DNA from: Solirubrobacterales bacterium
Lineage (GTDB): Bacteria > Actinomycetota > Thermoleophilia > Solirubrobacterales > 70-9
Assembly (NCBI GenBank): GCA_020438355.1
Contig: JAGQUT010000009.1
Coordinates: 1 to 64,000, forward strand
Direction: 5' to 3'
DNA: 64,000 nt
Made by a program: the position numbers and the translations under genes. Within the stretch, counting starts at the first letter, position 1. Each line of letters begins with the position of its first letter. Of this stretch, positions 37,154 to 44,958 are shown one piece after another. The notes under the pieces are model-generated. The model searched no databases and was not told the origin of the DNA. It saw only the letters and a list, made by a program, of their open reading frames with translations.

Positions 37154-39811
37154 CTAGCGCTTGACGCGCAGAATCTTCGCCTTGGTCTTGCCGTTGGCGG
37201 AGGTCAGCTTGACCTTCACCTTCTTGACCTTGCCGCGCTTGATCGCCTTGGCGTAGCGTCCGAAGATCTTCACCTTCGCCTTGCCCTGACCCGCCTTGTT
37301 CAGGCGGTAGGCACCCTTTCCGACAACCTTGTTGCCGGCGGGAAGGGTGACGATGATCTTGCCGCCACGGGTTTCCGACTTGAAGCCGACAAGAAGGCTT
37401 CCACCCCTGAGGCTGGCGCTGTAGAGGGTCGGACCGGCAACGAGGCCGTTATCCCTGGTCACCTTGACGGAAGCGTCGTCAGAAAGCACGGCTCCGGAAT
37501 CCTGGCTTGAGGACGAGCTGACCGTTGCGGTGTTGACGTATGTCTTCTCGCCAACCGGGACCGAGGATCCGGTCCTGGCTTCCAGGCAGAGCAGGTAGAG
37601 GGTTCCCGTCAGCGGATTCGCGGTCGGGTTCCAGACGTAGAAGACACGGCTCTTGGGCTGAGGGTCATTGCCGAGCGGCACCAGACCGTCATCGAATTCC
37701 CAGCCAGCGACGATTCCCTTTGCATTCTCGCCACAGATAAGGGATTCGGTCGCCTTGCCACCCGCGCCGATCGAAATCGGCTTGGTCACCTGGGTGAACA
37801 CCAGCTCGGAGCTGGCTCCGTTCACTTCGGAGGTCTTGTTCTGGAGGCAGCGAATGCTCGCTTCAACAGTTGCGGCGGCGCCACTGACCTTGAGAGTCAG
37901 CTTGCGACCGGTATCGCCGACGGGCGCATTACCCAGCATGAGGACACGGCCACCGGAAACGTCGATTCCGGGGGCGATCGGGGTCGAGCCGACCGGGCAG
38001 TTCAGCGTCACCTCATGAATGCCGGGTTTCAAAACCACGGTCTGCGTGACCGGAGAGCCGACCGTCAGGCTCCGGCCTTCGGTGGTCTTGCCGGGCAGAC
38101 ACACGGCGAACAGCTTGAGCTGGGCCTGGCCGGTTGCGTGATTGGTTACCGACGCGCTGTAGCTTCCGGTCGAATCGGACTCGAGCTTGTGGATCTCGAT
38201 GTCGTTCGCATCACCGGTGCCCTGGTCGATGTTGTCGACCCTGACTGCCGCATCCGAGATCAGGTCGCCAGGGTTGCAGGCGATCGACTCGTTGACAGTA
38301 TTGCCGGCCTGCATCGAGATCTGCTTTTCCACCTTGTAGATGGTCAGCTGCTCGTTCTGGCTGGAGACCGTCGCGGCCGGAAGAGTCGTTTTGACCTTGA
38401 TCTTGTAGGTCACGGTCTGCCCGGGAGCGACGGTGCCCGCGACGCAGGTGACCTGCTGGCCGGTGTAGGTGCAGGGATTGTCAACCTCGACGATGTCGAG
38501 GCCGGCCGGGACGTTGTCGGAAACGACTACGTTGCCCGAGCTGGCGGTTCCCCAGTTCTTGACCGAAATGGTGAAGGTCACGAAGCTGCCCTCGACGACC
38601 TCCGGGTTATCGGCGATCTTGTCGATCTTCAGCTTGGGGAGATCCGGGGTGGTAGGACCGGTGGGTCCAGTTGGGCTCGTCGGACCAGTCGGACCGGTCG
38701 GGCTCGTCGGACCGGTCGGGCCGGTCGGGCTGGTCGGGCCGGTGGGACCAGTCGGCGAAGTGGGGCCAGTCGGACCGGTGGGGCTCGTGGGGCCAGTGGG
38801 GCCCGTAGGACTGGTGGGGCCGGTCGGACCCGTCGGGCCGGTGGGCCCGGCCGGAGTGTCCGGGAGGCAGCCGGTGAACGGCGCGTGATGGGTCTCGCGG
38901 TCGGACTTGAAGGTCTTGGCGATGACCTGACCGATGTTGTGTCCGACATCATCGGCATCAACCAGCGCCTTGGTGGCCAGGATGGTGCCGCCGAAGGCCG
39001 ATCCGGTCTTCAGGGTCACGTTGGAAGCGTTGGCGAAGTTCCAGAGGGTGTTCTTGTTCTGGGAGGCGGTCGCCGAGTCCTGCGCCTGATTCCAGCTTCC
39101 ACCGATTCCGTTGCGGAAGTACATCTTGCCTTCCACATCGACGCTGGTCCCGGAGACGTTGATCAGGGCGGTCGAGCCGACCGGAACCTCGATCAGGATG
39201 GCCTTGAGATCCGAGAACATCGATGAGGTAACCGAGAAGACGTTCAGGGTGGTGTCGGTTCCCTTGAGGTAAAGGGCCTTGCCGCCGAGCGAGATGCCGG
39301 CCGGGTTCGAGCCGTTGGTGTTGATCACCGAGGCGCTGCCGGTCGCAGCGGCCGTCGCCCAGTTCGCTGACTTCGTTGCCAGGTCGCTGAACGCCGTTGA
39401 GAAGTTGGTCGGCGCGGCCATCAGCTGCGAGCCGCCGCCGTTGTAGTTGATGTAGCCGGTCAGCCCAGGGGTCCAGGCGCTGCCGCGCTGAAGGTTGAAC
39501 GACTTCGAAGTTCCGTTAACGACGAGAGTTGGATACGTCTTGCCGTAAGGGGGATCGGTGAGATGGGTGCCGACCGTCATGCCGGACGCATTCAGGTTGC
39601 CGCCGTAGGCGATAGCGCCTTCGGATTCGGCTCCGCGGCTGCCGTTCATCTGGACGAACTCGGTGTAGCCGGTTGCTGCGCCGACGGGGTTTGCCATGCA
39701 CGTCACCGAGGGGGCGGTAGCTCCCGCTGGTGCTGCGAACAGGAACGCTCCGATAGCGGCCAGAGCCGCGATCACGGTTGCCTTCATGGCACGACTGGTG
39801 CTGGGGATCAT
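37154..39811 (-). CDS. Choice-of-anchor A family surface protein with collagen-like linker
   Basis: 885 residues from an ATG with AAGGA 5 nt upstream. Signal peptide (core [20 protein letters not shown]) then a choice-of-anchor A domain (about 35-305, '[17 protein letters not shown]'), a Gly-Pro-Thr linker (about 320-387), a DUF11 module ('[20 protein letters not shown]'), further beta domains with regularly spaced Cys, and a final strongly basic module ending in a Lys/Arg-rich tail. No LPXTG or TM anchor is seen; the basic tail may bind wall polymers electrostatically. Anchor A modules occur in ice-binding-like and biofilm surface proteins. Confidence 0.85.
38651..38852 (-). repeat. Collagen-like 27-bp coding repeats (SPTGPTGPT)
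   Basis: Inside the surface-protein gene, the nine-residue unit SPTGPTGPT recurs about six times, flanked by GPT triplets. Synonymous third-position differences between units show the repeats are not freshly amplified. Gly-Pro-Thr triplets could form a bacterial collagen-like triple helix or an extended glycosylated stalk. Confidence 0.85.
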
Positions 39812-40049
39812 GTGGTCCTTGTGTAGTTGTCTGCTGCCACCAGAGTCGTTTCCCAAAGACTCCGGGCTGAACTGACAACGCAGCGAACCGATGTCGCTGA
39901 CTTGGGACGCTGTGGATCCCCCGATCCGCACCGTCCGGCAAGGCCAACCTCAACGGAGGTCGGAGATGCCGTTCAGAATTGGCTGACTATTGTACAGATC
40001 AGAAACACCAGTGGCCCCGAAAAGTTTCACGAAGGGTGCTGAAGCGTTC
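39812..40049. other. Intergenic region upstream of the surface protein
   Basis: 238 bp with no coding frame. It must hold the promoter of the choice-of-anchor gene. It contains an imperfect dyad near 39950-39965 (CCAACCTC/GGAGGTCGG) that might end the fatty acid hydroxylase transcript. Nothing else is recognised. Confidence 0.4.
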
Positions 40050-42368: not shown

Positions 42369-44699
42369 TCAGCTGATGCAGTTCGCTCGCTTCTTCTTTG
42401 GCGGGAAGGGGAGGTCCGCGATCGCTGCGGTTTCGAGGTAGCGGTTTTCCATCTTCTTGCCGCTTCCCGCCAGCAGGGCCTCGCCAGTCTTGCGTAGCTC
42501 TGCCCGCGGGGCGTCCTTGCGGACCCAGGGCGCGAGAGTTATGAACTGACGTTTCGGACCGGCGTATCGCTCGTATGAGGGGGCGTCCTCGGCCTGGAGT
42601 TTGCGGTTTCCGACATAGGCGCACTGCTTCTTGCCGAGCAGGCCGCGCTGGGTGATCGCGGTCTGACCGTCGAAAGGCAGGTCCCCGAGGTTGCCGACCA
42701 TGTGCGGGGTCACGTTGTAGGTGAACTTCACGCCCGGGTCCACGACGGAACGCCAGGTGGAGCCCATCCAGTCGAGTGGTTGCCAGTAGCTGCCCGTGGG
42801 GTTGGCCCATTCACCGGGGTTGGCTTCATCCTGCATGACCAGGTTGGTCCCCAGATGGCTCAGGCATCGCATATAGGTAACGCTGATGTCCGCACAGGGG
42901 GCAGCTGACGGGATCGGATCTCCGATCGAGTAGCCGAACTGGAAAGCCGGAAGGCTCGTCGCGAACCCGACCTTCGCCCTGGTCCCGGGGATCCGGTACG
43001 GCTTGACGTTCGCGACCCCGTCAGGGCCACTCTTCGGACCGGGCGTGAGGCCCAGCACGAGTTCGATCGTGGTCAGCGGAAGCTTCTTGTTGGAGGCGAC
43101 GACATTGCGCAGGGGTCGCGGTCCTTCCTGCCGGACCAGCTTCGGCCCCCACATGAAGACCTCGTTGTAGACCTCAGGGCTGGTTGCCACGTACACGCTC
43201 TTCGGCTTCGGCAGGTCCGGGTCCCGGAAGATGTCGATCTCGGCCGGATCCATCGACTCCCTGAAGGCAGGCTGATTGTTCGATCCGAGGATGTAGATGC
43301 CATACCGGCGGGCCATGTCAGAGAACACCTGCATCCAGCCGCGCGCGTCGGTGTCCGTGGTCGCCATGAAGCCCCGGGCGAACGGGCTCGGAATGCTGAA
43401 CCTCGAGAGGTACTCGGCGTTCGGCCCGGCGTAGGCGGCCGTGATCCGGTTCAGTCCGGCGATCGCCCGGCAGGGGGGCGCGGCCTCGGCACACTCGGAG
43501 ACCTCGGAGGGCCTGGCGAAAGCCTTGCGGGCGCTGGTGCCACGCGACCCGGTTCCGATTGCCATCAGGCCGATGTCCTCGTTGAAAGCCACCACGTTAG
43601 GACGGTGCTTCGACTTGTAGGGGAGGACCCACTTCCTGATCATGCATTCGATCTTCTTCCGAAAGCTCGAGTAGGTCTTGATGTGCCGGGCTTCCTGTTT
43701 GAACTGCATCGCAAAGACCCTGGGTCCACCCTTCGCGTCCCGGCGCTTCAGCAGGGCCCGGGCCGGCCTCCGGGTGTCCTTCGCGAAGGTCGCGCTGCAG
43801 GCCCTTGCCGAGGGAGCCTTGGGGATCGGGGAAAGCGCGGGAGCCACCTGTTTGATCGCGGTACGGGCCATCGACGGATCGTTCGAGATCACTGCGTCAA
43901 CTCCCAGGCCGGTCGCAGCCTTCACGTCGGCCGCGTTGTCGATCGTCCAGGGCACCACCTGGAGGCCTGCGTGATGCGCGTCGGAGACGTAGGTCTGGTC
44001 GATGGGCCACTGCGGTGAAACCCAGTCAATCCCGTTGTTCCTGGCGATGTTGATGCCGACCCCGTTGATTGCGTTCAGGGTCAGGAAGGAGGTCGCCGGT
44101 TCGGGGTAGACCTGATGGAAGCGAGTCAGGTTGGCGAGTGTGAAGGACTGGATGATCAGCTGCGACGAGGGAACTCCCGACGCCTTGATCACGTTGGCGA
44201 CGGTCTCCGCGTAGTCGTAGGTCGGGTCGAAGTCGTTGTCGGTCGGCAGGTTCTTGATCTCGATGTTGGCCTGGGCGCCCGTTCTCTTCAGGAGAGCCAG
44301 GAACTCCGCCAGGGTAGGTACCGCGGTCCGCCTCTCGTCTTCGGCACCGAGAGTCTCGGCCGCGTCGTCGATCCCGATCACGTCGATCTCGCACTCGGCC
44401 CGGATCTGGGCGGCAGTCACCGCCGAGACAGGGCCGATGCAGTTGGTCGTGCGGTCGAACTCGTCATCGTGGATCACAACCGGCACGTCATCCGAGGTCA
44501 GCTTCACATCGGCTTCGAGAACGAAACCGAGCCGGGCCGACTTCTCGAAAGCGGCGAGCGAGTTCTCCGGAACCGCAGCTTTCCCGGCTCCCAGGGGGCC
44601 TCCCCGGTGGCCATGCACCCAGGGTGATGCCGAAGCCTCGGACGCGAAGGCGCAAAGGACAAGCACGGACACGAACAGGAACGAGAAACGGAAATTCAA
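42369..44699 (-). CDS. Secreted glycerophosphodiesterase fused to a nitrilase-like domain
   Basis: 776 residues, TTG start with GAGGGGG about 7 nt upstream, signal peptide 1-24. GDPD domain (about 27-285): His31-Arg-Gly, Glu45-Asn46 (PENS), Glu62 and Asp64 (LEADVKLTSD), His77-Asp78, and 'NIEIKN'. It would cleave glycerophosphodiesters or lipoteichoic-like polymers. The second half (about 330-760) resembles the carbon-nitrogen hydrolase fold ('RPNVVAFNEDIGLM', 'DMARRYGIYILGSNN', a Cys in 'VTYMRCLSHLGTNLVM'), with distant likeness to apolipoprotein N-acyltransferase. Joint action on lipids or amide-linked envelope parts is inference. The final residues are basic. Confidence 0.82.
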   Translation of the reverse strand: MNFRFSFLFVSVLVLCAFASEASASPWVHGHRGGPLGAGKAAVPENSLAAFEKSARLGFVLEADVKLTSDDVPVVIHDDEFDRTTNCIGPVSAVTAAQIRAECEIDVIGIDDAAETLGAEDERRTAVPTLAEFLALLKRTGAQANIEIKNLPTDNDFDPTYDYAETVANVIKASGVPSSQLIIQSFTLANLTRFHQVYPEPATSFLTLNAINGVGINIARNNGIDWVSPQWPIDQTYVSDAHHAGLQVVPWTIDNAADVKAATGLGVDAVISNDPSMARTAIKQVAPALSPIPKAPSARACSATFAKDTRRPARALLKRRDAKGGPRVFAMQFKQEARHIKTYSSFRKKIECMIRKWVLPYKSKHRPNVVAFNEDIGLMAIGTGSRGTSARKAFARPSEVSECAEAAPPCRAIAGLNRITAAYAGPNAEYLSRFSIPSPFARGFMATTDTDARGWMQVFSDMARRYGIYILGSNNQPAFRESMDPAEIDIFRDPDLPKPKSVYVATSPEVYNEVFMWGPKLVRQEGPRPLRNVVASNKKLPLTTIELVLGLTPGPKSGPDGVANVKPYRIPGTRAKVGFATSLPAFQFGYSIGDPIPSAAPCADISVTYMRCLSHLGTNLVMQDEANPGEWANPTGSYWQPLDWMGSTWRSVVDPGVKFTYNVTPHMVGNLGDLPFDGQTAITQRGLLGKKQCAYVGNRKLQAEDAPSYERYAGPKRQFITLAPWVRKDAPRAELRKTGEALLAGSGKKMENRYLETAAIADLPFPPKKKRANCIS

Positions 44700-44958
44700 G
44701 AACTACCCCCTCGAGTCGACCGGTCACCCCGCGGGGTTCCCCTCCAGGGTCAGGATAACCGGGGCAAGGGCAACCGGGGAGAGCCTCGGGCGGCAGGCCA
44801 AACGTTGCATCAGTCTGGCCACGGACGAACTCTCCCCCTGGCGGTCGTTAGTCGAACCGCAAAATGCGGGGGTTGTTGCCAACTTGTGAATCAAGAATCC
44901 TGCGATTTGCGGAATCGCCTCCGACGCCGACCGGGCGGTCCTGCTTGGATGGCCACCG
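44700..44958. other. Intergenic region, 259 bp
   Basis: No coding frame is persuasive. A small stem CCGCA-AAA-TGCGG lies near 44858-44870. It should contain promoters for the diverging GDPD fusion and the small Cys-rich gene. Confidence 0.4.

What the first reader, a model, noticed from the sequence alone, without database searches (positions are those of the whole stretch)
42369..44699. Secreted GDPD fused to a nitrilase-like domain
An intact glycerophosphodiesterase catalytic set (His31, Glu45, Glu62, Asp64, His77) is followed by over 400 residues with carbon-nitrogen hydrolase features including 'AFNEDIGLM', 'GIYILGSNN' and a Cys in 'YMRCLSHLG'. I know of no characterised protein with this pairing. 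One chain may release a glycerol-phosphate head group and act on an amide or acyl-protein in the same envelope molecule.
Basis: partly seen in the sequence, partly recalled or inferred. Interest (0 to 1): 0.6.

Follow-up and report, generated by a model that had tools for sequence, protein, structure and literature searches.

The report
Secreted phosphodiesterase fused to serine-type nitrilase relative
A soil-type actinobacterium makes a secreted two-part protein: one half looks like a working phospholipid head-group cutting enzyme, the other is a distant relative of nitrilase enzymes in which the usual catalytic cysteine is replaced by a serine in every intact relative examined.

Summary
The ORF is real, on the minus strand (776 aa, TTG start). 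Residues 325-776 match no Pfam or NCBIfam model, but are a divergent nitrilase-superfamily (CN-hydrolase) domain. A related secreted branch links them to Pfam CN_hydrolase, and 47 of 50 rows of a structural comparison are nitrilases, although the model is poor. The nucleophile position is serine (S582) in 32 of 33 sequences; Glu374, Lys539 and Glu546 are kept. The one exception lost Glu, Lys and Ser together. The fusion arose once within the order. The domain also occurs alone and, fused or alone, lies beside a flavin amine oxidase gene with a Tat-like leader in 8 of 20 order genomes, with overlapping start/stop codons in four. Best reading: a secreted GDPD plus a serine-nucleophile amidase/esterase-like domain in amine or head-group turnover. 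Catalysis by serine is inferred, not shown.

The parts
42369..44699 (-). gene for the 776-aa GDPD / serine-type nitrilase-like fusion
   Evidence: one intact copy in its genome; orthologues in 11 further genomes
44706..44712 (-). Shine-Dalgarno-like GAGGGGG, 6 nt before the TTG start
   Evidence: also before the start in L002 and L003
44625..44699 (-). Sec-type signal peptide (residues 1-25, judged by eye: basic N-terminus, hydrophobic core, A-S-A)
   Evidence: sequence; no signal-peptide program was run
43845..44624 (-). GDPD domain (residues 26-285)
   Evidence: PF03009 E 2.8e-34; PDB GDPDs
44607..44609 (-). H31, catalytic His of GDPD
   Evidence: conserved 12/12 fused, 5/5 GDPD-only
44565..44567 (-). 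E45
   Evidence: 12/12 and 5/5
44508..44516 (-). E62 and D64, metal-ligand positions
   Evidence: 12/12 and 5/5
44469..44471 (-). H77, second catalytic His
   Evidence: 12/12 and 5/5; E62-H77 spacing of 15 equals Glu78-His93 of LpgD (PMC10404611, passages)
44259..44261 (-). E147
   Evidence: 12/12 and 5/5
43728..43844 (-). variable linker (residues 286-324)
   Evidence: 24-77% identity to five relatives
42372..43727 (-). serine-type nitrilase-superfamily-like domain (residues 325-776)
   Evidence: no Pfam/NCBIfam match of its own
43578..43580 (-). E374, general-base position
   Evidence: 23/24 near rows, 10/10 remote rows with a letter there
43083..43085 (-). K539, catalytic-Lys position
   Evidence: 23/24 near, 10/10 remote; aligned to nitrilase Lys
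43062..43064 (-). E546, second conserved Glu next to Lys
   Evidence: 24/24 near, 10/10 remote
42954..42956 (-). S582, in the column of the nitrilase catalytic Cys
   Evidence: 22/23 near, 10/10 remote; Cys in 16/16 canonical nitrilase rows
42894..42896 (-). C602, probable disulfide partner
   Evidence: 22/24 near rows, no letter in remote rows
42864..42866 (-).
   Evidence: 24/24 near rows, 0/11 remote rows

Best explanation
An exported bifunctional protein. Its N-terminal GDPD domain hydrolyses glycerophosphodiesters (or a lysophospholipid head group) to a glycerol-phosphate and an alcohol. Its C-terminal domain is a nitrilase-superfamily fold in which serine has replaced the catalytic cysteine, with Glu base, Lys and second Glu kept. 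It most likely works as a serine hydrolase: Glu374 activates Ser582, which attacks an amide or ester carbonyl; Lys539, held by Glu546, stabilises the oxyanion; water releases the acyl group. The domain's ancestral partner is an exported flavin amine oxidase encoded next to it, so the likely setting is extracellular breakdown of an amine-containing compound, with the GDPD added once in one clade. Shown: gene, GDPD residues, homology chain to CN hydrolases, Ser in the Cys column, single origin, gene neighbourhood. Inferred: export, fold in detail, catalysis by Ser, substrate.
For: GDPD: and invariant residues. CN-hydrolase ancestry: the near-family profile finds a sister branch (ORF E 1e-19 to 1e-12); sister-near hhalign 100%, E 4.4e-46; sister-nitrilase 95.5%, E 1.4e-8. 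PF00795 passes its cut-off in 5 of 9 proteins scanned, all 5 among 7 full sister-branch proteins. The sister profile finds both the window family and canonical nitrilases. Structure: 47 of 50 listed VIA-align rows are nitrilases, Z 7.5-5.7. Ser: 32 of 33, codons AGC/AGT in 29 and TCG in 3, so Ser survived codon-class changes; the only loser (L042) also lost Glu and Lys. Conservation is stronger in this domain than in the GDPD (85/82/64/57/62% vs 68/66/52/50/50% identity). Ser can be acylated in this fold: Lnt Cys387Ser acylates spontaneously (PMC5500888, section 8 read). Single fusion origin: support 94/93. Amine-oxidase linkage.
Against: Direct near-family vs nitrilase hhalign is weak (3.9%) and no Pfam model hits the window domain; the link runs through the sister branch. 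Both AlphaFold models are poor (pLDDT 42 and 36.5); Foldseek E-values are all above 0.3, and Z under 8 can be a common arrangement (note). Engineered Cys-to-Ser in Lnt blocks turnover at deacylation, so Ser could mean a slow or dead enzyme or a binding site. The window's own gene and 11 other order genomes have no amine oxidase in the flanks examined.
Confidence: 0.6

Rival explanations
1. The C-terminal domain is a pseudoenzyme: a nitrilase fold that lost its nucleophile and now binds a ligand or positions the GDPD (or, elsewhere, the amine oxidase or BNR domain).
For: Loss of the canonical Cys in all members; Cys387Ser of Lnt is inactive in N-acylation; different partner domains in different branches.
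Against: Glu, Lys, second Glu and Ser are all kept across both branches, and Glu, Lys and Ser are lost together only in L042. A pure scaffold would not need that set; L042 looks like the real pseudoenzyme.
Confidence: 0.3
2. The domain is an acyltransferase like Lnt, moving an acyl group through an acyl-Ser to an amine acceptor.
For: Lnt is a nitrilase-superfamily acyltransferase acting on phospholipid; Lnt Cys387Ser acylates; partner GDPD acts on phospholipid derivatives.
Against: No membrane domain in the ORF; O-ester stability blocks transfer in Lnt Cys387Ser; no lipoprotein gene link was seen or sought.
Confidence: 0.08
3. Cys612 is the catalytic nucleophile.
For: Invariant in 24 of 24 near-family rows with a letter there.
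Against: Profile alignments place it in the helix after the nucleophile strand; absent in 11 of 11 sister rows; 16 of 16 complete order-level domains have eight Cys and L040 has four, as disulfide pairs would give.
Confidence: 0.03

Closest known systems
GDPD family, PF03009 (PDB 5t91, 2pz0, 3qvq; S. aureus LpgD 8ghh)
   Same: Domain length, fold by homology, both catalytic His and acidic metal-ligand positions
   Different: Carries a 450-residue C-terminal domain not matched by Pfam or NCBIfam
Nitrilase superfamily / CN_hydrolase, PF00795
   Same: Order of Glu, Lys, second Glu and nucleophile motif; post-nucleophile helix and strand; best structural matches
   Different: Ser instead of Cys; eight Cys, probably disulfides; exported; inserts; no direct Pfam match
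Apolipoprotein N-acyltransferase Lnt
   Same: Extracytoplasmic nitrilase domain joined to another domain; second Glu beside Lys (PMC5500888)
   Different: Lnt uses Cys387 and has a membrane domain
NitFhit and other nitrilase fusions (1ems)
   Same: Nitrilase fold fused to an unrelated enzyme (PMC9913352, search listing)
   Different: Partner is a GDPD and the nucleophile is Ser
Lysine 2-monooxygenase / delta-aminovaleramidase pair DavB-DavA
   Same: An amino-acid oxygenase cloned together with an amidase (PMC4980613, passages); that DavB is an amine-oxidase-family flavoenzyme and DavA a nitrilase relative is recalled
   Different: Here both proteins are exported, the amine oxidase is closest to MAO and putrescine oxidase, and the nitrilase relative has Ser

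Membership tests
GDPD (PF03009) | profile match above gathering score | tested here: met
   119.7 bits vs 23.6
GDPD (PF03009) | two catalytic His and acidic metal ligands | tested here: met
   H31, H77, E62, D64, E147 in 12/12 fused
GDPD (PF03009) | phosphodiesterase activity | not testable with these tools
   needs assay
Nitrilase superfamily (PF00795) | homology to CN hydrolases | tested here: met
   through the sister branch; the direct comparison alone is inconclusive
Nitrilase superfamily (PF00795) | alpha-beta-beta-alpha sandwich | tested here: inconclusive
   poor models; matches dominated by nitrilases
Nitrilase superfamily (PF00795) | catalytic Glu and Lys | tested here: met
   E374 and K539, each 33/34 rows with a letter there
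Nitrilase superfamily (PF00795) | catalytic Cys nucleophile | tested here: not met
   Ser in 32/33, Gly in 1, Cys in 0; so it is a relative and possible functional analogue, not a canonical thiol-enzyme member
Lnt | N-terminal membrane domain of about eight helices | tested here: not met
   the ORF holds a signal peptide, GDPD and the C-domain only
Amine oxidase neighbour (PF01593) | profile match | tested here: met
   E 7e-67 to 4e-80 in 4/4 scanned

The most novel reading that the evidence does not exclude
A naturally serine-based branch of the nitrilase superfamily exists in Actinobacteria and is catalytically active. With a Tat-exported flavin amine oxidase and, in one clade, a fused GDPD it forms an extracellular head-group pathway. 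For example: glycerophospho-N-acylethanolamine to N-acylethanolamine plus glycerol-3-phosphate (GDPD), then fatty acid plus ethanolamine (Ser amidase), then aldehyde plus ammonia and peroxide (amine oxidase).
Probability: 0.15. Interest if true: 0.75.

Novelty: new variant of a known kind. Interest (0 to 1): 0.55.

Why it matters
Nitrilase-superfamily enzymes are described as thiol enzymes with a Glu/Lys/Cys triad (PMC5500888, passages). A conserved branch that keeps Glu, Lys and the second Glu but has serine in the Cys position makes a natural test of what this active site can do with an oxygen nucleophile. It escapes Pfam and NCBIfam, so such proteins would be annotated as plain GDPD or hypothetical. 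The overlapping gene pair with a Tat-exported amine oxidase, and the fusion to a GDPD, give a concrete and cheap substrate hypothesis for poorly studied soil Solirubrobacterales.

Tried and rejected
Sequence search of the PDB with the C-domain profile: one chance hit. Viral contigs with the near and sister profiles: none. Plasmids and phages: none. A GDPD gene beside the stand-alone domain: none in the 10 stand-alone loci tested. An operon at the window locus: the gene sits between S-adenosylhomocysteinase and a metallo-beta-lactamase-fold gene on the other strand; this order is shared with L002 and L003 and gives no pathway hint.

Co-occurrence: of 9 order genomes with an unfused GDPD of this type (E <= 1e-45), 4 also hold the sister Ser-nitrilase, which occurs in 8 of 232 genomes by the near-profile search. 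Hypergeometric P is 7e-5, but the genomes are related, so I count it only as a hint.

Literature: nitrilase + glycerophosphodiester phosphodiesterase + fusion, 0 papers; glycerophosphodiester phosphodiesterase + carbon-nitrogen hydrolase, 3, off-topic by title and abstract start; nitrilase superfamily + active site serine, 0; nitrilase + pseudoenzyme, 2, off-topic by listing; amidase + nitrilase superfamily + C145S, 0; two broader searches gave nothing on a natural Ser form in their listings. This covers only the held open-access library.

Rows dropped before counts: 55 used 37 rows, 26 near rows from 24 of 25 near genomes (the 25th, G256 = L002, is) and 11 sister rows; L043 and L068 are each split in two by a frame break, L047 is a fragment. 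The tree left out G723 and G347 for those breaks. Of 30 loci given to, 24 rows printed; 2 of these (L121, L126) do not align through the motif.

Full report
WHAT IS THERE. The finding is one 776-residue ORF on the minus strand (44699 to 42369), starting with TTG. A GAGGGGG ribosome-binding-like sequence lies 6 nt upstream and is repeated before the same start in two relatives. The N-terminus looks like a Sec signal peptide by eye. The genome holds one copy. Named relatives are MAGs of Solirubrobacterales and Thermoleophilaceae. Contig G256:C7, from a genome of the window's own genus, has the same length (544718) as the contig of 'Solirubrobacterales bacterium 67-14' that gave L002.

FIRST HALF. 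Pfam GDPD covers residues 39-276 (119.7 bits), and solved GDPDs match at E down to 5e-13. H31, R32, E45, E62, D64, H77 and E147 are identical in 12 of 12 fused proteins and 5 of 5 unfused relatives; K149 in 11 of 12. The spacing E62-H77 equals that of Glu78-His93 in S. aureus LpgD, whose mutants support a two-histidine, metal-assisted mechanism (PMC10404611, passages). I take this half to be active.

SECOND HALF: HOMOLOGY. No Pfam or NCBIfam model matches residues 290-776, nor any of the 10 members of alignment A3 except one chance hit (Pfam only). A profile of these 10 found two groups. The near family (about 480 residues, full-length) is in 20 of 232 order genomes and in 9 of 396 sampled phylum genomes. 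A sister branch, whose proteins tend to end in a BNR-like region (weak Pfam matches), is in 8 of 232; in the phylum sample it is in 4 of 396, with one further fragment. Five of seven full sister proteins scanned pass Pfam's CN_hydrolase cut-off (23.8-26.7 bits vs 23.2); two do not (18.2 and 20.8). By hhalign, sister vs near gives 100%, E 4e-46, over most of the domain. Sixteen canonical nitrilases from relatives vs sister give 95.5%, E 1e-8. The same nitrilases vs near directly give only 3.9%. Controls (GDPD, six column shuffles) give 0.1-0.7%. A sister-branch profile run on 396 genomes finds both the window family and canonical nitrilases. The AlphaFold model is poor (pLDDT 42). Still, VIA-align ranks nitrilase-superfamily structures 1 to 47 of 50 (Z 7.5 to 5.7, model residues about 30-372; one of the 47 is titled only hypothetical protein PH0642, its family recalled), and unrelated rows start at Z 5.6. 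Together this makes descent from CN hydrolases likely; the fold itself is not proven.

SECOND HALF: ACTIVE SITE. The alignments equate the nitrilase Glu (VLPEKW), Lys (DKIHM) and Cys (ICYDLRFPE) with near-family E374 (AFNEDIGL), K539 (NKKLPLTTIE) and S582 (FATSLPAF), and with sister-branch LPEDVGL, VKTYLTP and ISKDAWMPD. In one profile alignment the nucleophile column is C in 16 of 16 canonical rows and S in all 5 sister rows and the one near row that aligns cleanly. Counts: E374 23/24 near and 10/10 sister; K539 23/24 and 10/10; E546 24/24 and 10/10; S582 22/23 and 10/10. L042 alone carries A, R and G at E374, K539 and S582. Ser codons are AGC or AGT in 29 rows and TCG in 3, so serine was kept across a codon-class change in both branches. 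Sixteen of 16 complete order-level domains carry eight Cys and L040 four, which fits disulfides in an exported protein.

MECHANISM. In Lnt, Glu267 is the base, Lys335 stabilises the oxyanion, Glu343 sits beside Lys335, and Cys387 is acylated. [quoted passage not shown] So serine can do the first half of the chemistry; the second half would need water activation, as in serine amidases. I prefer a slow-to-normal serine hydrolase (about 0.6 for the whole reading, including the GDPD); a ligand-binding pseudoenzyme is the main rival (0.3).

EVOLUTION AND CONTEXT. GDPD plus C-domain in one ORF occurs in 12 genomes. On the C-domain tree these 12 form one side of a branch (94/93), among 11 stand-alone rows and 10 sister rows; one origin is favoured. 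Across five relatives the C-domain is more conserved than the GDPD. A flavin amine oxidase gene (PF01593) lies beside the gene in 8 of 20 order genomes that carry the near family: fused G041, G689, G690, G783; alone G154, G752, G723, G719. A weaker one lies beside it in 1 of 5 genomes outside the order (G347). It is in 0 of 5 sister loci. Two order flanks (G731, G754) are short or cut. The N-termini carry twin-arginine leaders by eye in all 9. In four cases the oxidase stop overlaps the next start (ATGA in L104 and L107, GTGA in the fused L005 and L150). G723 has the reverse order and G719 a divergent pair. Related oxidases at E <= 1e-60 exist in 113 of 232 order genomes. With 2 to 5 copies per genome, chance would put 8 of 20 this close with P about 2e-10 or less (rough, ignores shared ancestry). 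The closest solved relatives are monoamine and putrescine oxidases. So the amine oxidase looks like the older partner and the GDPD a later addition. The window's genus lacks the neighbour in the three genomes looked at; the window's genome holds a related oxidase on another contig (C45). GDE1 and GDE4 release N-acylethanolamine from glycerophospho-N-acylethanolamine (PMC6166290, passages); that is the source of the pathway in the novel case, and nothing here tests it.

VERDICT. Real, conserved and exported by its look; a new serine variant of the nitrilase superfamily fused to an ordinary GDPD.

Noticed in passing
L104:6523-7917, L107:6429-7790, L005:1160-2500, L147, L148, L149, L150, L112: Flavin amine oxidases with Tat-like leaders are encoded beside the serine-type nitrilase relative, often with overlapping stop and start codons.
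   Followed up: partly
L045, L053, L070-L075, L048, L118: Sister branch of exported Ser-nitrilase relatives with weak BNR-repeat matches in the C-terminal part.
   Followed up: partly
L042:919-2907: A divergent relative that has lost Glu, Lys and Ser of the active site together; probably a true pseudoenzyme.
   Followed up: no
L148, between amine oxidase and fused gene: A small exported ORF that looks like an L,D-transpeptidase (HGCVRM motif, recalled) sits between the two genes.
   Followed up: no
window 37154-39931, minus strand: Large exported protein with a pAdhesive_15 ice-binding-like domain, DUF11 and a long GPTGPTSPT repeat.
   Followed up: no
G246:C5, 17802-19253 and 29709-31043: In this genome a related amine oxidase lies about 10 kb from the stand-alone domain gene on the same contig, outside the flank that I fetched.
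   Followed up: no
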